The position numbers were made by a program, and so were the translations under genes. The notes beneath the pieces are model-generated. The model had not been told where the DNA came from. It saw only the letters and a program-made list of their open reading frames with translations, and made no database searches. Of a stretch of DNA of 28,696 bases, positions 7,779-23,423 are shown one piece after another. The stretch comes from a virus, in the IMG/VR virus record IMGVR_UViG_3300020390_000013, positions 1 through 28,696 of that record. The stretch is one strand, 5' to 3'. Every line of letters begins with the position of its first letter. Positions within the stretch are counted from its first letter, which is position 1.

Positions 7779-9560
7779 ATGGCTGCCGTACTGCCCGACA
7801 CGACCGATTCCCCTCGCCTACAGGCCCGCAATCTGTATTGGCAGGGCTGGCGCATTGCGCGCCTGGCCGAGCATCTGGATGTGCCGGCGGCGACGCTGCA
7901 CAGCTGGAAAAAGCGCGATGGCTGGGACGATGCCCGCCCGATCGAACGCGTGGAGGGCGCGCTCGAGGCCCGCTATATCCAGCTGATATGCAAGGACGTC
8001 AAAGAGGGCAAGGATTTCAAGGAGATTGATCTGCTCGGGCGTCAGCTGGAGCGGATGGCGCGGGTGACGCGCTATCAGTCGTCGGGCAACGAGGCGGATC
8101 TGAACCCGGCGGTTTCTAACCGTGGCACGTCGGCACGCCGGAAAAAGCCTAAGAATTTCCTAGACGATTCGCAGATCGCGGCGGTTAAGGAGGAATTCTG
8201 GCGGGAGACGTTCGATTATCAGCGCGACTGGTATCGGGCGGGTATCGATAACCGCATCCGCAACATATTGAAAAGCCGGCAGATCGGGGCGACGTGGTTT
8301 TTTGCGCGCGAAGCGCTCGTTGATGCGCTGGTGACGGGAAAGAACAAGATTTTTCTAAGCGCGTCCCGTGCGCAGGCTTATGTTTTTCGTAGCTACATTA
8401 TCGCGCTGGCGATGTCTGCCGCCGACGTTGAGCTCAAAGGCGGGCGTGATTCGCCGCTGGTGCTGGCAAACGGCGCGGAGCTGTACTTTCTCGGCACGAA
8501 CGCGGCGACGGCGCAGGGCTACCACGGCGACCTGTATCTTGACGAATATTTCTGGATTCAACACTTTCAGGAATTCCGAAAGGTCGCGTCCGGCATGGCG
8601 ATGCATAAAAAGTGGCGTCAAACCTACTTTTCGACGCCGTCGAGTATTGCGCATGAAGCATACCCGTTCTGGACGGGTGAGCTGTTCAATCAGCGCCGGC
8701 CGCGCGATCAGCGCGTCATCATCGATACGTCCCACGAGGCCTTGAGGAACGGCGCAAAGTGCGCGGACGGCCAGTGGCGACAGATCGTGACTATTGACGA
8801 CGCGATCGCCCGGGGCTGCGACCTGTTCGACCTTGACCAGCTGATGCTCGAGTATTCGCCCGAAGAGGCGGCGAACCTGCTGCGCTGCCAGTTCATTGAT
8901 GACAGCGAAAGCGCGTTCCCGCTGTCGTTTATGCAGGGCTGCATGGTCGACAGCTGGGACGTGTGGCGCGACTTCGACCCGTTCGCGCCCCGCCCTGTCG
9001 GTGACGATGCGGTCTGGCTGGGGTATGACCCGGGCGGCGATAACCCGGACGGGGACGGCGCGGGGCTTTCGATCGTCGCGGCGGCGGATCGCCCAGGGGG
9101 CACGCATCGCGTTATCGAGCGGCATCGTCTGCGTGGCGAAGACTACGAGGCGCAGGCGCAGTTCATCCGCGAACAGATGAAACGCTTCAACGTGACCCAT
9201 ATCGGCGTCGATACAACCGGCATCGGCGACAGCGTGGCGTCGCTGGTCGAGAAGTTCTTTCCGACGATGGTGCGCTACCGGTATACGCCGGAGGTCAAGA
9301 GCGCCCTAGTGCGTCAGACGCAGCAGATGATTCGCAAAGGCCGGCTTGAGTTCGATTCAGGCTGGTCCGACCTGGCGCACAGCTTTATGGCGATCAAAAA
9401 GACGATAACCGACGGCGGGCGCCAGATTACTTACAAAGCGGGCCGATCGAGCAAGACCGGTCACTCGGAATTTGCCTGGGCGACGATGCACGCGCTTGGC
9501 GCGGCACCGATCGACGGCGATATGCCCAATTCGGGCGGTGTTATGGAGATTTACGGATGA
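7779..9560 (+). CDS. P: Terminase large (ATPase) subunit P
   Basis: 593 residues. The N-terminus has a helix-turn-helix (about 18-48, YWQGWRIARLAEHLDVPAATLHSWKKRDGW). The ATPase follows with a Walker A-type loop at 165-173 (KSRQIGATW) and Walker B at 252-256 (LYLDE). The C-terminal RNase H-like nuclease has acidic residues D417 (GYDPGGD) and D478 (GVDTTGIGDSV), and an EFAWATMHAL helix near the end. It drives DNA into the prohead and cuts cos with gpM. The stop overlaps the Q start (ATGA), so P and Q are co-translated. Confidence 0.97.
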   Translation: MAAVLPDTTDSPRLQARNLYWQGWRIARLAEHLDVPAATLHSWKKRDGWDDARPIERVEGALEARYIQLICKDVKEGKDFKEIDLLGRQLERMARVTRYQSSGNEADLNPAVSNRGTSARRKKPKNFLDDSQIAAVKEEFWRETFDYQRDWYRAGIDNRIRNILKSRQIGATWFFAREALVDALVTGKNKIFLSASRAQAYVFRSYIIALAMSAADVELKGGRDSPLVLANGAELYFLGTNAATAQGYHGDLYLDEYFWIQHFQEFRKVASGMAMHKKWRQTYFSTPSSIAHEAYPFWTGELFNQRRPRDQRVIIDTSHEALRNGAKCADGQWRQIVTIDDAIARGCDLFDLDQLMLEYSPEEAANLLRCQFIDDSESAFPLSFMQGCMVDSWDVWRDFDPFAPRPVGDDAVWLGYDPGGDNPDGDGAGLSIVAAADRPGGTHRVIERHRLRGEDYEAQAQFIREQMKRFNVTHIGVDTTGIGDSVASLVEKFFPTMVRYRYTPEVKSALVRQTQQMIRKGRLEFDSGWSDLAHSFMAIKKTITDGGRQITYKAGRSSKTGHSEFAWATMHALGAAPIDGDMPNSGGVMEIYG

Positions 9561-10591
9561 GCGAGAGCGAGCAGGCAACCGTCAATGCGCCCGGCATGGA
9601 GGCGTTCACGTTCGGCGAGCCGACGCCGGTGACGTCGTTGCGCGATGTAATTTATGAGGGGTGCTGGTTGTCGCCCGATGAATGGTATGAGCCGCCGGTG
9701 CCGTTCCCCATCCTGTCAGCGAGCTACCGGGCAACCGCGCACCATGGTTCGGCGCTGCAGGTTAAACGTAATATCCTCAAATCGACGTTCATGCCGCACC
9801 CGCTTTTGACACGGCGAACCTTTGGCGGGGTCGCTTTAGATTTGCTCGTGTTCGGGAATATGTATCTTGAGCAGCGCCGCAGCCGCATGGGCTCACCAAT
9901 GCCCTATCAACGGTTGATGGCGAAGTACACTCGCCGCGGCGGCAAGAACGCGGATCGCTACTGGTGGGTGCCGAACTACGTTGATGCCACTGAAATTCCG
10001 GGCAAGCGCGTGGTACACGTGATGGAGCCGGATGTAGACCAAGATATTTATGGTCTGCCCGACTATCTGGGCTCGCTCCAATCGACATGGCTCAACGAGT
10101 CGGCCACGCTGTTCCGCCGCCGCTACTATCTGAACGGCTCGCATGCCGGGTTCATCATGTACGTCAACGACCCGGCGCAGGACCCGAAAGACATCGACGC
10201 GATGCGCCAGGCGCTCAAAGACAGCAAGGGGCCTGGCAATTTCCGCAACCTGTTTCTGTACTCGCCCAACGGCAAAAAGGACGGCATTCAGCTCATCCCG
10301 ATCAGCGAGGTGGCGGCGAAAGACGAGTTCTGGAACATTAAGAACATTACGCGCGACGACCAGCTCGCAGGCCACCGCATCCCGCCCCAGCTGATGGGCA
10401 TCGTGCCGCAGAATACGGCCGGGTTCGGTGATATCGAGAAGGCCGCCGGGGTATTCGTCGAGAATGAGCTCGGGCCCCTGCAGGAAACGCTGCGCGAGAT
10501 CAACGAGATTGTCGGCGAAGAGATCGTGCGATTCCGCCCCTACAGGGTGGGCGGCGCCACAGCGCCAGCGCTAGACCCAGCGCGCAGCTAG
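9557..10591 (+). CDS. Q: Portal protein Q
   Basis: 344 residues. The blocks EAFTFGEPTPV, WYEPPVPFPILSASYRATAHHGSALQVKRNIL, FGNMYLEQRRSRMG and ITRDDQLAGHRIPPQLMGIVPQNTAGFGDIEKAAGVFVENELGPLQ are those of P2 gpQ. It forms the twelve-fold ring at the head vertex through which DNA passes. It is the last gene of the rightward late unit, and a terminator follows 54 bp after the stop. Confidence 0.97.
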   Translation: MSESEQATVNAPGMEAFTFGEPTPVTSLRDVIYEGCWLSPDEWYEPPVPFPILSASYRATAHHGSALQVKRNILKSTFMPHPLLTRRTFGGVALDLLVFGNMYLEQRRSRMGSPMPYQRLMAKYTRRGGKNADRYWWVPNYVDATEIPGKRVVHVMEPDVDQDIYGLPDYLGSLQSTWLNESATLFRRRYYLNGSHAGFIMYVNDPAQDPKDIDAMRQALKDSKGPGNFRNLFLYSPNGKKDGIQLIPISEVAAKDEFWNIKNITRDDQLAGHRIPPQLMGIVPQNTAGFGDIEKAAGVFVENELGPLQETLREINEIVGEEIVRFRPYRVGGATAPALDPARS

Positions 10592-10670: not shown

Positions 10671-11060
10671 TGCTCGCGTTGCCGCGTAGAGCGGCCGCAC
10701 TTGCCCATTAGTATAGCAAAATCAGCCGCTTAATTGTGGCCTATATTGGCCCGCTGGACACCCATGCAGCCCACCAATGCCGGCCCTACCAGCCGCCCGG
10801 GCCAGCGCGCGTAACCGCGCGATCCACGATCAGCAAGCACACGCCAGGGCCACCCAGGCCCCGGCCCAGCCGGCGGCGCGCGCAGTCGACACCCCGCCCC
10901 GCCTGCGGTGTTCGGGGCGTGGTTTCCATGCAACCCGTGCGAGCCGGGAAATCCAGCCAGCGCAAGGCGGCCAGAGCGGCGGCCAAGCACACTAAATGCT
11001 TCCGAAATCATGCGTTTATCGCCCGTGATAGCCAGCGTATCGCCCAGGTCGCGCCGCCAG

Positions 11061-11378
11061 AATCCGTGACGCCATCGGAAAAGAGTTACAAAGGTAACAG
11101 GCTCGAAAATGGCCCGCATCTTGCTGATTAATAACAAAAAAGTTTGTAACTTTCTTGGGGTTACAAAAAGTGACAAGAAAGCAACGCAAGCACTAACCCA
11201 TTGAAGATAAAGCCGTTTATGAAGTCATGGCGTTACGTCAATAAAAAGTAACAAGTAACTTAAACGTCACTTATTTGTAACTTCTTAGCGCCGCTCACTT
11301 TCTTTTCTAGAACAGCGACCTATGCCTTTTTTTATGGCTTGTTACCTTTGTAACTCTTTTCCGATGCCCTCACGGATT
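11061..11378. repeat. AT-rich nested inverted repeat with ten GTAAC/GTTAC boxes; candidate origin or att/cos region
   Basis: The outer arms 11061-11099 and 11340-11378 are a 39-bp inverted repeat with two mismatches; 27 bp are perfect. Each arm ends in GTTAC-AAAG-GTAAC or its complement. The inner arms 11160-11174 and 11266-11281 (GTTACAAA-AAGTGAC, one-base indel) share almost the same centre, near 11220; close to the centre lies ATAAA-GCCG-TTTAT (11207-11220). GTAAC or GTTAC occurs at 11085, 11094, 11146, 11160, 11232, 11248, 11255, 11277, 11341 and 11350. The interior is far richer in A+T than the rest. No transposase or other gene fits between the arms. Iteron-like boxes in AT-rich DNA suggest a replication origin for the primase-helicase; recombination or packaging roles are alternatives. 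Confidence 0.75.
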
Positions 11379-11441
11379 TTAGAAGCCTCGCAGACACGGG
11401 AAGGTTTTTCCCGCCGTCCCTCGTGTTTCGGTTGCTCGTGG

Positions 11442-13010
11442 CTACGCCGCTTTGCCGGCCACGACGGCCAGCAATATGGGTGGCAAACTATCGGGTCCCC
11501 TTGGGGACGCCATACATGGCCACGCGTCCACTGTCATTCGATAGTGGATCGTGGTTTCAAGGCTAGCTGGGTCCAGGGTTACGTGGCTTATAAAGCCACG
11601 TAGCTCTGGCTTCAGTTTTTCCCTCTCTGTTTCCGCCAGCGCATTCGATACCGTTTCCAGCGCTGCGCGAATCTCCTTATCCGTAATACTGGCCAGCGTG
11701 CTTTGTTGCCGCTGCTGCTCTTCTGCGCGCGTGATCGCATCGGCCAGCGCCTTGCGCTCGCGCTCGAGGCCATCGACGCGGCGAAGCGCGGGCGCGGGGT
11801 CTTCCATCTTCTCGGCGAGTTCCATGGCGCGGTCGATGCGTGCGTTGACCTGGTCGATCTGCGCGCGCAGCTGCTGGATGTCGGTTGCGTCGGTCTGCGC
11901 GGACTCTCGCGCGGCTTCGGCCATCGCCTCGGCGAATTCTTCGCCGCCGATATCGCTGGCCAGCTGCTGCAATACAAGATTGTCGACGTCTGCGCAGTTC
12001 ACGTAGCGGCCTCGGCTGCCCGCGTCTGGCCGGTAGCGGTATTGGCGGCGCTTGTGGCCATACCAGGGCTGACCGTCCGGCGTAACCAGCAGGCCAGACA
12101 GTAGGTAACTGCTGTTGCCCGACTTGGCCTCGCTCACGCGGCGGCCGGTGTCGCTGTTCTCCAAGCGCTCGATCAGCGCTTCGGCGTGATTCTTCTCGAT
12201 CAGCGCTTCGTGTGTGTCGTGCTGAATGATCCATTCGCTGCGCGGCCGGCGTTTTGAGCCGCCGCGATAGCCGCCTTCGGGCAGTTTTTCGGCGTGAACA
12301 TTCCAGACGGTGGCGCCGGCGTAGGTGAGCGCGTTCCATTCCATGCCGATCAGCGTGGACGTGCTGCGCTCGATGCCCGATGCCTCGATCGCGGCGCGGC
12401 GCGTCGCGCCTTGGGCGCGCGCGGATAGATAGCGCTGCGCCTGGCTGGCCTGGGGCTGCTCGGGCTGGAGGCGGGTTTTCGTGACCTCGCGGCCGTCGCG
12501 CACGGTGCCCACGCCGACCGACGCCAAGCGATAGCCGAACGGCGCGCGGCCGCCGGCGCGCCATCCGCTGCGCACATTCTCGGCCATGCCGGCGAGCCCC
12601 TTCTCGCGCGACATGAGGCTGTGGACCTCGTCCATGGCTGTCATCGTGCTGTAGACGATGACCTCGGTGATGGGGTCCATTTCCTCCGGCATTTTCGCGT
12701 ATCGCACTTCCACGCCCCGCTTTTTCGCTTCGTGGCGGAATGCGTGGGCGAAATACGTGCGGCGCGATATGCGGCTCGTGTCGATGGCCAGCAGCACCGA
12801 CCAGTTACGATCGTTGCCGCGTAGATCCTGCAGCAGCGTTTGGAATTGAGGGCGGAATTCGTCTTTCGCGCTTTCGACCGTGTCGCTGTACTCGGCGACC
12901 ACGGTGATGCCCTGGCGTCTAGCGAGGGCCGTGAGTTCCCGACGTTGTGAACTGATGGATACGTCGGATCTGTCTTTGCTGCTGCGCAGGTACATCGCTG
13001 CGTTGGTCAT
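11442..13010 (-). CDS. Large serine recombinase (phage integrase)
   Basis: 522 residues from ATG 13010, which has GGGAG 8 bases upstream; a 546-residue reading has an unlikely N-terminus. The resolvase domain (1-150) has Y7-L-R9-S-S11 with the likely catalytic S11, and DTSRISRR (77-84). The recombinase domain carries GRAPFGYRL. The region that is normally a zinc beta-ribbon (LLSGLLVTPDGQPWYGHKRRQYRYRPD...VNCADVD) has lost its cysteine pairs. A long coiled coil follows (QQLRAQIDQVNARIDRAMELAEK ... LERERKALADAITRAEEQQRQQ). It would integrate the phage by attP x attB recombination, replacing the tyrosine integrase of P2. It is the last gene of the leftward early operon. Confidence 0.93.
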   Translation of the reverse strand: MTNAAMYLRSSKDRSDVSISSQRRELTALARRQGITVVAEYSDTVESAKDEFRPQFQTLLQDLRGNDRNWSVLLAIDTSRISRRTYFAHAFRHEAKKRGVEVRYAKMPEEMDPITEVIVYSTMTAMDEVHSLMSREKGLAGMAENVRSGWRAGGRAPFGYRLASVGVGTVRDGREVTKTRLQPEQPQASQAQRYLSARAQGATRRAAIEASGIERSTSTLIGMEWNALTYAGATVWNVHAEKLPEGGYRGGSKRRPRSEWIIQHDTHEALIEKNHAEALIERLENSDTGRRVSEAKSGNSSYLLSGLLVTPDGQPWYGHKRRQYRYRPDAGSRGRYVNCADVDNLVLQQLASDIGGEEFAEAMAEAARESAQTDATDIQQLRAQIDQVNARIDRAMELAEKMEDPAPALRRVDGLERERKALADAITRAEEQQRQQSTLASITDKEIRAALETVSNALAETEREKLKPELRGFISHVTLDPASLETTIHYRMTVDAWPCMASPRGPDSLPPILLAVVAGKAA

Positions 13011-13121
13011 CGGCCATTCTCCCGTTAGGCACGACCAAAGGTAGCAGGCGCCGGGCCGCCTCGCGGCCCGGCTTGCCGACACTCGGCTTGATGGTGGGTT
13101 TCTGGGCCTGGCGAGTCATGG

Positions 13122-14237: not shown

Positions 14238-15098
14238 TTAGGCCTCCCGCTGGTGCTGGTGCGCGAGATTGGCCGCGAACTGCATTGCGCTGTCGCCGGC
14301 TACCCCGGTTTCGAGCACGTCGGCAACGGCCGGGCCAATCGCTTCTATTAACGCCATGAGCTGGCCATAGTTCTTAGCCAGGCGATCGCTCTTGATGCCT
14401 CTACGCTGCAAGCCGTAGCCCCACGCGTCAGCATTGGCCGCCACGTGGTCGGCGATCGCTGGCGCGCAGGCGGCAACCTTTCGGCCGAATTCGCGCGCGT
14501 CGTCTACTGGCCAGAGTGCGAGCCGATTCGCGGCCGCGGCGGCCGCGGCCGGATCATCGCGGCATATGCGGCCCAGATCGATACGACAGGTACGTTCGGC
14601 CAGCGCAGGCGATACGTCTGCCGGGCTGTCCGGTGTGAAAACAACGCCGGCTGACGCGGCAATCTCGGTCACTGCATCGCTGTATTTCGTGCCGCGCGCC
14701 GCGATGCGATCGCCTTCATAACAGGGCTTCAAGTCATCCCATGTAAAACTGGTCGGCGTCCATTTCGTCGGCCTATCAACAGTCACGAACACCGCGGGCT
14801 TGCGATCGTCGCCGGCCAGCGCTTTGATAAGCGCGTTGGGCGTCGCATGTAACGGCGCGATGCCTTCGTAATCTGGAATGCCATACAGGCGCCACAGGAA
14901 TTCCAGTAGCGTGCTTTTGCCAGTGCCTTCGCCGCCCGTGAGCATGAGCAGCGGGAACGTGCGTTGTTTTTCGCGGATCTCGCGGGCCGCGATCGCGCCC
15001 GCCCAGAACGCGACGGCGCAGATGCCGGCGTTGCCGAAGCTGGCGAGCAGGTCTTCTTTCCACGCAGCTGGCGTAGTTTCTTGGGGCTTTACGGTCAT
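14238..15098 (-). CDS. Free-standing ATPase, paralogue of the primase-helicase C-terminal domain
   Basis: 286 residues from ATG 15098, with GGGAG upstream; the longer frame is a shadow. Walker A is G55-GEGT-G60-K61-S62, and a likely Walker B strand is AVFVTVD. Residues about 20-160 align collinearly with about 521-660 of the primase-helicase. For example FWAGAIAAREIREKQRTF matches FWTGALFAEQIRARHKSF, and TLLEFLWRLYGIPDYEGI matches TLIEFLWKLCGRQDYEGF; both continue with a (T/F)-W/DWD(D/E)L block and GD/GRxIAARG-like RGxK. It has no zinc finger or Toprim domain. It could be a helicase partner, loader or regulator that mixes with the primase-helicase ring. The C-terminal half is more divergent. 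Confidence 0.85.
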   Translation of the reverse strand: MTVKPQETTPAAWKEDLLASFGNAGICAVAFWAGAIAAREIREKQRTFPLLMLTGGEGTGKSTLLEFLWRLYGIPDYEGIAPLHATPNALIKALAGDDRKPAVFVTVDRPTKWTPTSFTWDDLKPCYEGDRIAARGTKYSDAVTEIAASAGVVFTPDSPADVSPALAERTCRIDLGRICRDDPAAAAAAANRLALWPVDDAREFGRKVAACAPAIADHVAANADAWGYGLQRRGIKSDRLAKNYGQLMALIEAIGPAVADVLETGVAGDSAMQFAANLAHQHQREA

Positions 15099-15118
15099 GG
15101 GTTCTCTCCCTGTGGGGC

Positions 15119-15325
15119 TTACCGGCGGTGCCGGGCGTCGTGGTCTTCTTGGCAGCTGGTGCAGCGTGTGCAGCCGGCGATGGCCTTGCGGCGGCGCTCG
15201 GGTATCGGTTCCTCGCAGTCGATGCACTCGTGGCGGCTGATGCCGCGGTAGCGAACGCGGTTGGCGTCGCGCAGCCGGGCTTCGGCCTCTTCGCGCTGTA
15301 CGGAAATGTCGGCGGCGTCTGCCAT
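15119..15325 (-). CDS. TraR/DksA-type zinc finger protein
   Basis: 68 residues from ATG 15325; the longer frame upstream is a shadow. Cysteines C34, C37, C55 and C58 give CX2C-X17-CX2C, the exact DksA/TraR spacing, after RGISRHECIDCEEPIPERRRKAI. Proteins of this family reach into the RNA polymerase secondary channel; short phage and plasmid copies can change host transcription like DksA plus ppGpp. The N-terminal coiled coil is short, as in TraR. It stands between two early-operon genes. Confidence 0.9.
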   Translation of the reverse strand: MADAADISVQREEAEARLRDANRVRYRGISRHECIDCEEPIPERRRKAIAGCTRCTSCQEDHDARHRR

Positions 15326-15342
15326 GGGTCTTCCTTCCTCGG

Positions 15343-15558
15343 TCAGTGGGTGGCGGCGCGTGCGAGTTGGCGCTGCACGGCCAGGGTGGGTGCGGTGGAG
15401 GCACAGACGGGCACGCCGTCGATGCGGTGCTCGGCCTGCCACCAGCCGCGGCGTACGCGCAGCACGCGCACGGCGTAGCGCTGGCCGGCAGCGGTGCGGC
15501 CCATGCCGAGCCATAGGCCGGCATGCAGGCAGCGAAAGCGCAGCGGGCGCGTGTTCAT
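15343..15558 (-). CDS. Small basic protein of unknown function
   Basis: 71 residues: MNTRPLRFRCLHAGLWLGMGRTAAGQRYAVRVLRVRRGWWQAEHRIDGVPVCASTAPTLAVQRQLARAATH. It is rich in Arg and Trp with a beta-like pattern, and ends in a helix. ATG 15558 overlaps the stop of the preceding gene (ATGA), which is the main reason to call it. No family recognised; nucleic-acid binding is possible from the charge. Confidence 0.65.
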   Translation of the reverse strand: MNTRPLRFRCLHAGLWLGMGRTAAGQRYAVRVLRVRRGWWQAEHRIDGVPVCASTAPTLAVQRQLARAATH

Positions 15559-16528: not shown

Positions 16529-16932
16529 TGCGAAGCCCCCGTGGTCCAGTTCCAGAGCCCCAGCGCGCCTCTGCACGGCACCGGCTCGATACGCTTAACG
16601 TTGGCGAGCACCCAGCAATACGGCCCGAAGGTGTGCTCGTGGGCTGCGAGCCAGGGGTGCTTTTCGTCGTAGCGTCCGCGGCGCACGTCGTCGATGTGAC
16701 AAACATCAACGAGTCGCGCCATCGCGATGACGGCTCCAAAAGTCATTTCAGAAACCGGGTCCGCCTCGTCGATGTGCTCGCGGCTCTTACCCGCATGGAT
16801 AGCGAGGGGGCCGCGATAGGCTGTAAACCACGTCCGGTTCTCGACCGGCTTCTCACGGACCGCGATCAGGTGCGCGAACGGCTGGCACACGGTCAGTGCC
16901 TTGATCGGCGTATTGCCTTGCCCTTGGCTCAT
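16525..16932 (-). CDS. ASCH-domain protein
   Basis: 135 residues from ATG 16932, overlapping the primase-helicase stop (ATGA). IKALTVCQPFAHLIAVREKPVENRTWFTAYRGPLAIHAGKSRE is the ASCH signature (QPxAxLI..G.K..E.R.W...YRGxLxIHA). It is followed by a beta-rich stretch (FGAVIAMARLVDVCHIDD ... YCWVLANVKRIEPVPCRGALGLWNW). ASCH proteins are PUA-like RNA- or modified-nucleoside-binding folds; some, such as YqfB, hydrolyse acetylated cytidine. Phage copies are common near replication genes, with unknown role. Confidence 0.88.
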   Translation of the reverse strand: MSQGQGNTPIKALTVCQPFAHLIAVREKPVENRTWFTAYRGPLAIHAGKSREHIDEADPVSEMTFGAVIAMARLVDVCHIDDVRRGRYDEKHPWLAAHEHTFGPYCWVLANVKRIEPVPCRGALGLWNWTTGASQ

Positions 16933-19613
16933 GGCTTCTCTCCCGCAAAAACCCAGACCCGTACGCTCGGCCCGCCTTCGAGCACGCGCGAGCGAATGCA
17001 GGTGTTGGATTGGATGAAACGGCGCGATTTGGAGGACTTGAGGTAGCGCTTGACCTCTTTCATGGGCGGCATATGCAGGCCGCGCCGGGAGCACTCGGAT
17101 TCAAACTCTTTGAGGTTGATCGCGATGCGGTTTTTGTCGTCGAAGTCGCCGGCGTGGTTGAGCTTGGTGCCCTCGTGGACGGATTCGATGTACTCGTAGG
17201 CGTCCCAGAATTCTTCGACTATGGGGTGGTCGGCGTTGATCGATTGCTGGCGCTCTTCGGCCATCTCGATGACGCGCTGGCTGGCTTCGGCGAGTGGCTT
17301 TTCGTCGATCAGGTCCAAGCCATCGGGGCCGAGCGCTTCGACCAGCGTGAGCAGCTGGGCGTGGTTTTTCGCGATACGCAGGTTGGAGACGCCTTCTCGT
17401 GCGAGCAGCATGTCCTCGTAGCTGCCGACGCGGTTGTCGAGCATGTCGAGGATGCGTTTCTCGGCGATGGTGGCTTCTAAGATGTAGCCGCTGACCGCCT
17501 CGACCGGCTCGCGCTCGAGCGCTTCGGCCATGCGCTTGGTTTCGGCCGTCTGGCCCGCGATGGTGGTTTTGATGTGGCAGATGCGCGACTGGATCGCCGG
17601 CGAGGCCTGTACCTCGGCGTTTTGCGATATGACGATGGCGCCGCGAAACGGCGGTTCGTACGTCTCGTTGCCGGAGTTCTTCACGCCCCGGGCGCGGATT
17701 GAGCGGCCGTTGTAGGCGGTCTTGAGCTCGTCCCAATCGAACTGTTTTTGTTTCGCCCCGCCCTCGGCGTCGCGGTCGGACTCGATAAGCACGACGGGCA
17801 GATTGGCGACCTGGGCGAAGTTACGCGCCCTCGCCGGCATGCTGGCCTTGGCGGGGTCGAAGCCTTCGTAGTCCTGGCGGCCGCAGAGCTTCCAAAGAAA
17901 CTCGATAAGCGTTGATTTACCCGTGCCCGGCTCGCCTACGATTTCGAGAAACGGAAACGATTTGTGGCGGGCGCGGATCTGTTCGGCGAACAGCGCGCCC
18001 GTCCAGAACGCCAGCGCGACCACGCCTTTCGCGCCGTAGGCGCCGACCAGGTTGGGCACCCAGCGGCGGGTGAATTTCTCGCGCTCGCCGTTGATGGCCA
18101 GCTGGGCGGACTGCGACAACGTTTTGAGCCGCAACCGGCCCAGGTTGAAATAGTCCTCGCTGGTCTGGCGGTACACGCGGCCACGGGATACGGCCAGGTC
18201 GCCGAGCACCCAGGTTTCGTGCTCGCGCGAGTAGCCGACGAAATCAATCGTTTCGACCGTCTTGATGCGGCCGACCTGATCCTGCAGCAGCCGGTCCAGC
18301 TGGGCCGAGCTGCCGGTATAGATCGCGCCGGCGCAGACGTGCATGACGCGCTTTTTGAACTCGGCCGCGGCGCCCAAGTGGCCGCTCGTGAACGTGTTTT
18401 TCGCCGAGTGGCCGTCGGGCGAGTCGATGCGCCAGTAGTACCAGGCTTCGTCCGTGACCTCGTTGCGCTGGTAATACAGCGCGTACGGCATGGCGGTGCA
18501 GATGCGCGTGGCTTTGGAGGCCTGGGCGATCGCGCTTTCGCGTTGCTCGCGCATCAACAGCTTTGCGTCGCCGTGGTCGGCTTCGGGGTCGTCGAGAAGC
18601 GTTTTGATGGCCTTGTCGTAGGCGCCCATATCGAGCGCGAACCAATAGAGTTGGCTTTGATACTCGAACCAGAATTCGCGCTGCTCGCGGCGGGTGTACA
18701 TGAGCCGCCCCTTGTCGAGCGGCGTGGGCGCTAGCAGCAGGTCGCCGTAATAGCGATAGGTTCCGATATCCGCCTTTTCGAGCTTCCCGTAGCGGTGCAG
18801 GTCGGACCAATCACGCCCGACGGGCGGCTGTGCGGCGCGGCATTCCCAACCAGCCTCGCGTGCCTTGGCAACGTGATCTTGCGTGGCGCGGCGGCCGGCG
18901 CGGTTGGAATCCAGCGCCCAGACCAGCGTGGGTAGTTTTTCGCGGGCCGCGTGGGCGGCGTCGGCGATGCGTTGCAGCGCGGCCCCGGGGTAGTTGTTGC
19001 AGCTCATGGCCGCAATACCGGGGATATCGGCATGCGCCAGGGCTATATCGTCGAAAATGCCCTCGACGATCCAAACCTCGCCGGCGGCGACGAAATCGGC
19101 ATCGGCGTGCATTTGCCACGCCTCGCCTTTGTAGTCGCCGGCGAACCGGGCTTTTTGTTTGCCGAAGCGGTGCGGGCGGTCGATGAAGCGTTCCCATGTC
19201 GCGCCGTTGGGCAGCGTGAAACGCACCGTGGCAGTTCCGGCCTGCAGCTTCTCGCTGAAAAAGGATTCCTGTAGATACAGGCCCTTGATGCGCTCCAGGT
19301 CGAAGTGGCGATCCTCGGCTAGATACAGCTTTGCGGCGCCCAGCGGGTCCGGCATTTCTTCGCGGCTTGCCGGCTTGGCGCGCTCGGACCAGCTCTCGAA
19401 GATCTCGGGGAACAGGTCGCGTACATGATTCGTGCTGCCGCAGTTGTCCATGCGGCCGCAGAACACGAGCGTGGGCTTGTCGGCATACGCCCAGGCCTCG
19501 CGCTTGTGGCAGTCCGGGCAGGCGATGCGCTGGATATAGCGGCCCTTCTCGACGCCCTGGAAAACGGGGTCTTTGAGCCGGTGCAGCACGTCTTGGCGGA
19601 TGGAATCGAGCAT
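16929..19613 (-). CDS. Toprim primase fused to a P-loop helicase
   Basis: 894 residues. The N-terminal zinc finger has C32, C35, C52 and C58. The Toprim domain (about 175-265) has E184 (VEGIFDD) and D235 in ALDSNRAG, where the usual DxD is DxN. A P-loop domain follows with Walker A G560-EPGTGKST and the strand VVLIESDRD. A long middle part (300-520) joins them. It would make RNA primers and unwind DNA at the phage fork. P2 itself uses the rolling-circle nickase gpA, which is absent here, so this phage probably replicates by a theta or P4-like scheme. The start shares a base with the upstream stop (TAATG). It is the largest gene of the early operon. Confidence 0.93.
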   Translation of the reverse strand: MLDSIRQDVLHRLKDPVFQGVEKGRYIQRIACPDCHKREAWAYADKPTLVFCGRMDNCGSTNHVRDLFPEIFESWSERAKPASREEMPDPLGAAKLYLAEDRHFDLERIKGLYLQESFFSEKLQAGTATVRFTLPNGATWERFIDRPHRFGKQKARFAGDYKGEAWQMHADADFVAAGEVWIVEGIFDDIALAHADIPGIAAMSCNNYPGAALQRIADAAHAAREKLPTLVWALDSNRAGRRATQDHVAKAREAGWECRAAQPPVGRDWSDLHRYGKLEKADIGTYRYYGDLLLAPTPLDKGRLMYTRREQREFWFEYQSQLYWFALDMGAYDKAIKTLLDDPEADHGDAKLLMREQRESAIAQASKATRICTAMPYALYYQRNEVTDEAWYYWRIDSPDGHSAKNTFTSGHLGAAAEFKKRVMHVCAGAIYTGSSAQLDRLLQDQVGRIKTVETIDFVGYSREHETWVLGDLAVSRGRVYRQTSEDYFNLGRLRLKTLSQSAQLAINGEREKFTRRWVPNLVGAYGAKGVVALAFWTGALFAEQIRARHKSFPFLEIVGEPGTGKSTLIEFLWKLCGRQDYEGFDPAKASMPARARNFAQVANLPVVLIESDRDAEGGAKQKQFDWDELKTAYNGRSIRARGVKNSGNETYEPPFRGAIVISQNAEVQASPAIQSRICHIKTTIAGQTAETKRMAEALEREPVEAVSGYILEATIAEKRILDMLDNRVGSYEDMLLAREGVSNLRIAKNHAQLLTLVEALGPDGLDLIDEKPLAEASQRVIEMAEERQQSINADHPIVEEFWDAYEYIESVHEGTKLNHAGDFDDKNRIAINLKEFESECSRRGLHMPPMKEVKRYLKSSKSRRFIQSNTCIRSRVLEGGPSVRVWVFAGEKP

Positions 19614-23034: not shown

Positions 23035-23062
23035 TTGACGTTACGCGGTAACCGCGTATTAT
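23035..23062 (+). promoter_or_regulatory. Promoter with a perfect palindromic operator in its spacer
   Basis: TTGACG (23035-23040) and TATTAT (23057-23062) are 16 bp apart, the best sigma70 promoter in the window. The spacer contains TACGCGGT-A-ACCGCGTA (23042-23058), a perfect 8-bp inverted repeat around one base that runs into the -10. A protein bound there would block RNA polymerase. The core also reads GTTAC-GCG-GTAAC, recalling the GTTAC/GTAAC boxes at 11061-11378 but with different spacing. The transcript leader is about 60 bases, with GGAG before ATG 23130. The regulator is probably one of the DNA-binding proteins of the same cassette. Confidence 0.82.
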
Positions 23063-23129: not shown

Positions 23130-23423
23130 ATGAGTAACCGCACGATCACCGCCATCCGCGTCTACAACGTCAACATCGACATGGACCCGGAATTGACCGA
23201 ATCAGACGCGAAGGGCTATGCGCATTGGCTTGAAAACCAGCTGCGCGCCGAATACCCCAATGCCGAAATTGACGTGAGCGACGAAACGCAGACCTACGCG
23301 CTCGCGCTTGAAACCAGCGACGGCGAAGAAACGATCATCTCTGGCGGCTTCTCGGCCGAGCGTGATGAAGTCGAGCAGTTTCTTGCCGATTGCTGGGACC
23401 GCTGCCCCTGGACCTGGGTTTGA
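23130..23423 (+). CDS. Small, strongly acidic protein; candidate DNA mimic or anti-defence protein
   Basis: 97 residues with 21 Asp/Glu against 6 Lys/Arg (net about -15): MSNRTITAIRVYNVNIDMDPELTESDA ... AEYPNAEIDVSDETQTYALALETSDGEE ... VEQFLADCWDRCPWTWV. TTGGAGCAAC gives a good ribosome site. It is the first gene after the operator-promoter. I recognise no family. Small acidic proteins at the head of a tightly regulated phage operon are often DNA mimics or inhibitors of host defence, but other roles are open. Confidence 0.8.
   Translation: MSNRTITAIRVYNVNIDMDPELTESDAKGYAHWLENQLRAEYPNAEIDVSDETQTYALALETSDGEETIISGGFSAERDEVEQFLADCWDRCPWTWV

What the first reader, a model, noticed from the sequence alone, without database searches (positions are those of the whole stretch)
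11061..11378. Nested inverted repeat with GTAAC boxes: candidate origin, att or cos of unusual form
A 39-bp outer inverted repeat (two mismatches) and an inner 15-16 bp inverted repeat share nearly the same centre near 11220, where there is also a small palindrome. Ten GTAAC/GTTAC pentamers fall in 270 bp, where about one would be expected by chance. The segment is an AT-rich island in GC-rich DNA and holds no gene. It lies between portal and serine integrase. Because gpA of P2 is missing and a primase-helicase is present, a P4-like iteron origin is the most attractive reading.
Basis: partly seen in the sequence, partly recalled or inferred. Interest (0 to 1): 0.75.

Follow-up and report, generated by a model that had tools for sequence, protein, structure and literature searches.

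The report
Replication origin of a P2-like phage
The nested repeat is very probably the DNA replication start site of a P2-like phage: a 320-bp cluster of short protein-binding boxes that is kept in many related phages sharing one kind of primase-helicase and is missing from relatives that replicate in another way.

Summary
In detail: a 37/39-bp outer inverted repeat, a co-centred 15-16-bp inner repeat and ten GTAAC/GTTAC boxes in 270 bp (0.8 expected, 0 of 5000 randomised sequences) in a 40% GC island within 65% GC DNA. A profile built from relatives without the window finds 11060-11382 end to end (E=5.5e-30), so it is a conserved, two-fold symmetric element. It occurs in P2-like phages that carry the window's primase family (phrog_1139; 12 of 15 testable records) and in none of 15 testable gpA-type (rolling-circle) relatives with the same portal, terminase and cos. 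cos lies about 155 bp to its left, in phages with and without the island. In Smp131, which has the island, published cos and attP map elsewhere. Box sequence changes between phages (GTAAC, GGTAATT, GGTGAG, GGAACA, TGTCAG, TGTGATG) while the layout stays; in phi3 the cluster directly follows the primase gene. Best reading: an iteron origin, read by the primase-helicase, functionally like P4 and SaPI origins. Origin activity and the binding protein are inferred, not shown. A helper-phage variant of a known kind; I found no earlier description in the papers searched.

The parts
11061..11378 (.). Whole element: two-fold symmetric iteron island, proposed replication origin
   Evidence: profile without the window hits 11060-11382 at E=5.5e-30
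11061..11099 (+). Outer inverted-repeat arm, left (37/39 with the right arm; 49 nt at 88%), carrying the box pair GTTACAAAGGTAAC
11340..11378 (-). Outer inverted-repeat arm, right, carrying GTTACCTTTGTAAC
11160..11174 (+). Inner inverted-repeat arm, left (GTTACAAAAAGTGAC)
   Evidence: read directly
11266..11281 (-). Inner inverted-repeat arm, right (GTCACTTATTTGTAAC)
   Evidence: read directly
11085..11098 (.). Boxes 1-2 (11085 GTTAC, 11094 GTAAC; 9-bp phase)
11146..11164 (.). Boxes 3-4 (11146 GTAAC, 11160 GTTAC)
11232..11281 (.). Boxes 5-8 (11232 GTTAC, 11248, 11255 and 11277 GTAAC)
11341..11354 (.). Boxes 9-10 (11341 GTTAC, 11350 GTAAC; 9-bp phase)
11201..11220 (.). Central 70% AT stretch (TTGAAGATAAA...), counterpart of the conserved central TTGATTTTATT of relatives; candidate melting region
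   Evidence: the role is inferred
10878..10907 (-). P2-type cos element (GCGCGCAGTCGACACCCCGCCCCGCCTGCG); not part of the origin, shows that cos is separate
   Evidence: matches the annotated cosL of AP3
16929..19613 (-). Proposed initiator: Zn-ribbon/Toprim primase with P-loop ATPase (helicase-like) domain, phrog_1139
16929..17258 (-). C-terminal domain of the primase (about residues 786-894), proposed box-reading domain; also found fused to Bro-N in genes near two islands
   Evidence: role inferred

Best explanation
11061-11378 is the replication origin (ori) of a P2-like phage in which gpA-type rolling-circle initiation is replaced by a Toprim primase with a P-loop ATPase/helicase-like domain (phrog_1139). 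Proposed mechanism: about ten GTAAC half-sites, set as two mirror-image sets around an AT-rich centre with a 9-bp-phased pair at each outer end, are bound by the initiator, probably through its C-terminal domain. Two oligomers assemble face to face, melt the centre and load as helicases; the Toprim domain primes, and host polymerase extends. Shown here: existence, symmetry, conservation, one island per genome in the records examined, association with the primase family, separateness from cos and (in a homologue) from attP, and replacement of the box sequence within a constant layout. Inferred: protein binding, the domain that binds, melting, loading, and direction of replication.
For: (1) Homology: a profile without the window finds it end to end, E=5.5e-30; the profile also matches its own reverse complement end to end in most members. 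(2) Co-occurrence: primase and gpA never occur together in 50 portal-selected records (19 and 24). The island is in 12 of 15 primase records and 0 of 15 gpA records with at least 800 bp held beyond the portal (Fisher p=1e-5, related sequences). 0 of 26 further records, most of them island-bearing, have gpA. (3) Blind scans for the outer box pairs, made without reference to any gene: in IMG/VR and in 257 Gb of prokaryote genomes nearly all true islands with enough flank lie beside a P2-like portal. (4) Named isolates with the primase: Smp131, Dobby, phage-plasmid pPHPALO552 and Halomonas phage 4908 have it; phi3 (GGAACA x16, directly after the primase gene), PfPro (TGTCAG x10) and ESSI2 (TGTGATG x6) have the same layout with other boxes; L041 uses GGTGAG. 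(5) AP3, FLC10 and KS14, with other primases or initiators, lack it. (6) cos is a separate element; attP of Smp131 is elsewhere (PMC3931495). (7) SaPI and SCCmec helicases read short iterons through a C-terminal domain (PMC7581432).
Against: No replication or binding data. GC skew does not change sign at the island, so a bidirectional origin is not visible. Three primase records lack it: G030 (an IS-like transposase follows the portal and the record ends), G040 (record ends 2 kb beyond the portal) and G039 (rearranged); truncation is my explanation for the first two, not proven. Mae-JY29 and the Azospirillum and Sphingomonas replicons carry the primase but no clear cluster. The C-terminal domain model has no significant PDB match. 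C-terminal domains do not diverge specially when boxes differ, so the identity of the reader domain is open. In the window the island lies 5.5 kb from the primase gene.
Confidence: 0.83

Rival explanations
1. Packaging site: the island is part of cos (cosN, or cosB-like terminase binding sites).
For: P2-family cos lies next to the portal gene; the island is 130-250 bp from the cos element in most relatives.
Against: The cos element itself is identified about 155 bp away and is present with near-identical sequence in gpA-type relatives that lack the island although their portal is 72-76% identical to the window's. In L078 the two are about 1 kb apart. Presence follows the primase, not the packaging genes.
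Confidence: 0.03
2. Attachment site (attP) or integrase arm-site array.
For: It ends 64 bp from the serine integrase stop codon; in Halomonas phage 4908 the record starts at what looks like a tRNA 3' end just outside the island.
Against: Occurs with tyrosine integrases (Smp131, Dobby, Halomonas) and serine integrases (window, L041) alike. In Smp131 attL/attR were sequenced and attP is at 30738-30783 while the island is at 33028-33346. gpA-type phages lack it although they also integrate.
Confidence: 0.04
3. Regulatory operator array or centromere-like site for a phage repressor, antirepressor or partition protein, not an origin.
For: Bro-N antirepressor-like proteins that share the primase C-terminal domain are encoded near the island in G045 and G004. 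A GTTACGCGGTAAC palindrome sits in a sigma70-like promoter at 23035-23062 of the window, so the same half-site may be used in control.
Against: No gene start is tied to the island in the window; the neighbouring genes change between relatives while the primase family stays; no ParB-like gene was seen near it; two-fold symmetric clusters around an AT-rich centre are the form of initiator-helicase origins.
Confidence: 0.08
4. A mobile miniature element (MITE) with long terminal inverted repeats.
For: Long terminal repeats around a short non-coding body.
Against: One copy per record in those examined, constant length (about 270-330 bp) and position beyond the portal and cos in phages of several bacterial classes, linked to one gene family, internal boxes conserved; no clear target duplication.
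Confidence: 0.01

Closest known systems
SaPI rep-ori (SaPIbov1/SaPI5 Rep) and SCCmec Cch/Cch2 origins
   Same: Clusters of about 5-bp iterons read by a self-loading initiator helicase through its C-terminal domain; [quoted passage not shown] phi3 has its cluster directly after the initiator gene, as SaPIs do.
   Different: Primase is Toprim/DnaG-type and fused to the ATPase domain; the host element is a full P2-family phage, not a satellite; in most members, including the window, the origin lies several kb from the initiator gene, next to cos.
Satellite phage P4 alpha protein with ori/crr
   Same: Primase and helicase fused in one initiator, which drives autonomous replication (PMC7145576); repeats in a non-coding origin (own knowledge).
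   Different: No sequence relation tested or found; one symmetric ~320-bp island and no second crr-like region seen; different box sequence (P4 boxes from memory).
Phage P2 gpA/ori
   Same: Same virion and packaging genes and a similar cos.
   Different: P2-type phages use gpA rolling-circle initiation; window and island phages have no gpA and gpA-type phages have no island.
Iteron plasmid origins
   Same: Several short repeats, AT-rich segment, replicon-specific box sequence.
   Different: Inverted, two-fold symmetric order instead of tandem iterons; initiator is a primase with a P-loop helicase-like domain.

Membership tests
Iteron-type origin of a primase-helicase initiator (P4/SaPI kind) | Cluster of short repeated boxes far above chance in non-coding, AT-rich DNA | tested here: met
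Iteron-type origin of a primase-helicase initiator (P4/SaPI kind) | Linked in presence and absence to a cognate initiator family | tested here: met
   12/15 against 0/15; named phages; exceptions listed
Iteron-type origin of a primase-helicase initiator (P4/SaPI kind) | Initiator carries primase and ATPase/helicase domains | tested here: met
   Toprim_2 E=5.6e-11, conserved P-loop GEPGAGKS, weak DUF5906; helicase activity itself not testable here
Iteron-type origin of a primase-helicase initiator (P4/SaPI kind) | Initiator C-terminal domain binds the boxes | not testable with these tools
   Indirect only: shuffled C-terminal domain near islands; sequence co-divergence test uninformative
Iteron-type origin of a primase-helicase initiator (P4/SaPI kind) | Confers autonomous replication | not testable with these tools
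   Circumstantial: the phage-plasmid record pPHPALO552 has primase and island and no other annotated initiator
P4 alpha/ori family by descent | Homologous initiator with P4-type boxes and crr | not tested
   P4 was not compared directly; no claim of membership
P2-type cos | Contains the GC-rich cohesive-end core | tested here: not met
   That core is at 10878-10907, outside the island
attP | Position at the prophage-host junction | tested here: not met
   Tested in the homologue Smp131; not mapped for the window's own serine integrase
P2 gpA/ori | gpA initiator present | tested here: not met
   no PF05840 match; the record is a fragment

The most novel reading that the evidence does not exclude
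P2-family phages carry an interchangeable origin cassette whose box sequence is private to each lineage, so that the boxes set replication identity. Bro-N proteins that borrowed the primase's C-terminal domain would bind the same boxes and switch or block replication of resident or rival phages, a copy-control or exclusion layer not described before.
Probability: 0.25. Interest if true: 0.75.

Novelty: new variant of a known kind. Interest (0 to 1): 0.56.

Why it matters
P2 is the textbook rolling-circle phage, yet 19 of the 50 portal-selected relatives carry this other replication module. Locating its origin makes initiation testable in isolates already deposited (Smp131, Dobby, phi3, Halomonas phage 4908), offers small replicons for Pseudomonas, Stenotrophomonas and Burkholderiales hosts, and shows that head genes and replication modules are exchanged independently, with the origin beside cos.

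Tried and rejected
Direct blastn of the region in named phages and plasmids found nothing because only the boxes and layout are conserved; blastn with the L082 island gave nothing and with L017 only chance hits. I first took L168 as a non-P2 replicon with a free-standing primase C-terminal domain next to the island; fetching the whole record showed a decayed P2-like prophage with terminase and a broken primase, so that argument was dropped. GC skew as an origin mark: uninformative. Foldseek of the C-terminal domain against PDB: only insignificant matches, ORC first, E>=0.13. Divergence of the C-terminal domain against box type: no signal, and the Smp131 primase C-terminus looks frameshifted in the record. 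Box-agnostic symmetric-pair scan: clear hits (11 or more boxes) in Dobby, Smp131, ESSI2, phi3, pPHPALO552 and L041, none in 24 gpA loci; it misses the window, PfPro and Halomonas because their outer pairs are imperfect. Rfam: no match. Literature searches for an earlier description of this origin found none.

Full report
What was checked. The window is a linear 28.7-kb IMG/VR fragment of a P2-like phage: terminase P (7779-9560), portal Q (9557-10591), the island (11061-11378), a serine integrase (11442-13082, minus), a Toprim primase (16929-19613, minus), and the tail genes D and T at the right end. The island is as described: a 37/39 outer inverted repeat, a co-centred 15-16-bp inner repeat, a small central palindrome and ten GTAAC/GTTAC boxes in 270 bp where 0.8 are expected.

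The element is conserved. Portal relatives in IMG/VR showed the same kind of island 0.2-3 kb downstream of the portal in more than fifteen loci. Aligned, most share a frame TCGGAAAAAGGTAAC ... GTTACCTTTTTCCGA, 9-bp-phased outer box pairs and central TTGATTTTATT-like stretches. A profile from the relatives alone finds the window at 11060-11382 with E=5.5e-30. The profile matches the reverse strand of most members from end to end, so the element is a true two-fold symmetric structure.

What it goes with. In 50 portal-selected records the primase family phrog_1139 (19) and gpA (24) exclude each other. Islands occur in primase records and in no gpA record: 12 of 15 against 0 of 15 when at least 800 bp beyond the portal are held (sequences are related, so p=1e-5 overstates the evidence). 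The gpA group includes phages whose portal is 72-76% identical to the window's, closer than most island carriers (about 58%), so the link is with replication, not packaging. Scans made with the outer box pairs alone returned 23 IMG/VR stretches and 21 genome stretches; two (L162, L166) and two (L178, L185) of these are different clusters, and nearly all the rest with enough flank lie beside a P2-like portal in Pandoraea, Ralstonia, Cupriavidus, Undibacterium, Thauera, Aliidiomarina, Moraxella and others.

Named phages. tblastn with the primase finds 23 phage records. Smp131, Dobby (Citexvirus), Halomonas phage 4908 and the P. aeruginosa phage-plasmid pPHPALO552 have the island. phi3, PfPro and ESSI2 have the same layout with GGAACA, TGTCAG and TGTGATG boxes; in phi3 it starts about 75 bp after the primase stop codon. 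L041, with a serine integrase 50% identical to the window's, has GGTGAG boxes. Boxes within one island change together while spacing and symmetry stay, as expected for sites read by a replicon-specific initiator. AP3 and FLC10 (primase phrog_5629) and KS14 (which carries a replication-initiation protein gene) lack it. ZY1 has the primase but its record starts and ends exactly at gene boundaries, so the intergenic gap where the island would lie is not in it.

Not cos, not att. The annotated cosL of AP3 (AGGTGGGGCGGGGTCACAACT) identifies one conserved element, GCGCGC..GTCGACACCCCGCCCCGCCTGCGCGCT, at 10878-10907 of the window; it lies 130-250 bp left of the island in nearly all island loci and is also present in gpA loci without island. 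In Smp131 the cos fragment and both att junctions were sequenced by others (PMC3931495): attP is at 30738-30783 and cos at the record ends, while the island is at 33028-33346. That paper does not mention the island in the passages read.

How it probably works. The primase has zinc-ribbon, Toprim, a conserved P-loop ATPase domain and a C-terminal domain. The C-terminal domain (FWEA..LNH..IAINL...LKR.LK.S..R.F...VKCWVF) also occurs fused to Bro-N in genes near the islands of G045 and G004, so it is a shuffled module; its model (pLDDT 83-87) has a strand-helix-helix-two-strand order like a winged helix but no significant PDB match. In SaPI and SCCmec elements the initiator helicase reads short iterons through its C-terminal domain, probably as two hexamers (PMC7581432). 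By analogy I propose that the primase binds the mirror-image box sets, melts the AT-rich centre and starts replication there. Binding, reader domain, melting and direction are inferred.

Weak points. No experiment; no skew signal; three primase records without island, of which two end early; distant primase carriers (Mae-JY29, Azospirillum, Sphingomonas) without a clear cluster; the co-divergence test was uninformative. L168, which at first looked like an independent replicon, is a decayed P2-like prophage.

Verdict. The element is a new, helper-phage variant of a known kind of origin.

Noticed in passing
window 14238-15524 (-): A 428-aa protein matches only the ATPase part of the primase family (phrog_1139 positions 501-756, E=2.8e-36), without Toprim or C-terminal domain; a second, partial copy between integrase and primase. 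Role unknown.
   Followed up: partly
window 23035-23062: GTTACGCGGTAAC palindrome overlaps the spacer of a sigma70-like promoter (TTGACG, 16 bp, TATTAT) before the ORF at 23130; the island half-site may also serve as an operator.
   Followed up: no
L151:3591-4382 (+) and L136:12452-13258 (-): Bro-N antirepressor-like proteins whose C-terminal part is the primase C-terminal domain, about 75 bp and about 0.85 kb from islands.
   Followed up: partly
L168:3702-7315: UvrD-like helicase plus OLD-like Toprim ATPase (Gabija-like pair) and an Abi_2 gene between a decayed portal and the island: defence genes in the portal-cos hotspot.
   Followed up: partly
L162:2164-2520: Box cluster of GGTAAC type directly after a DUF927 primase/helicase gene in an AT-rich phage, in SaPI-like arrangement; the island profile does not match it.
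   Followed up: partly
L185:5029-5330, L178:1224-1494 and L166:8584-8893: Unrelated symmetric GTAAC clusters in Saccharothrix, a Clostridia bacterium and an AT-rich phage (before a VapE-like helicase gene).
   Followed up: no
window 11442-13082 (-): Large serine integrase in a P2-like phage; nine relatives at 38-48% identity in IMG/VR and one at 50% in L041, while the named relatives use tyrosine integrases.
   Followed up: partly
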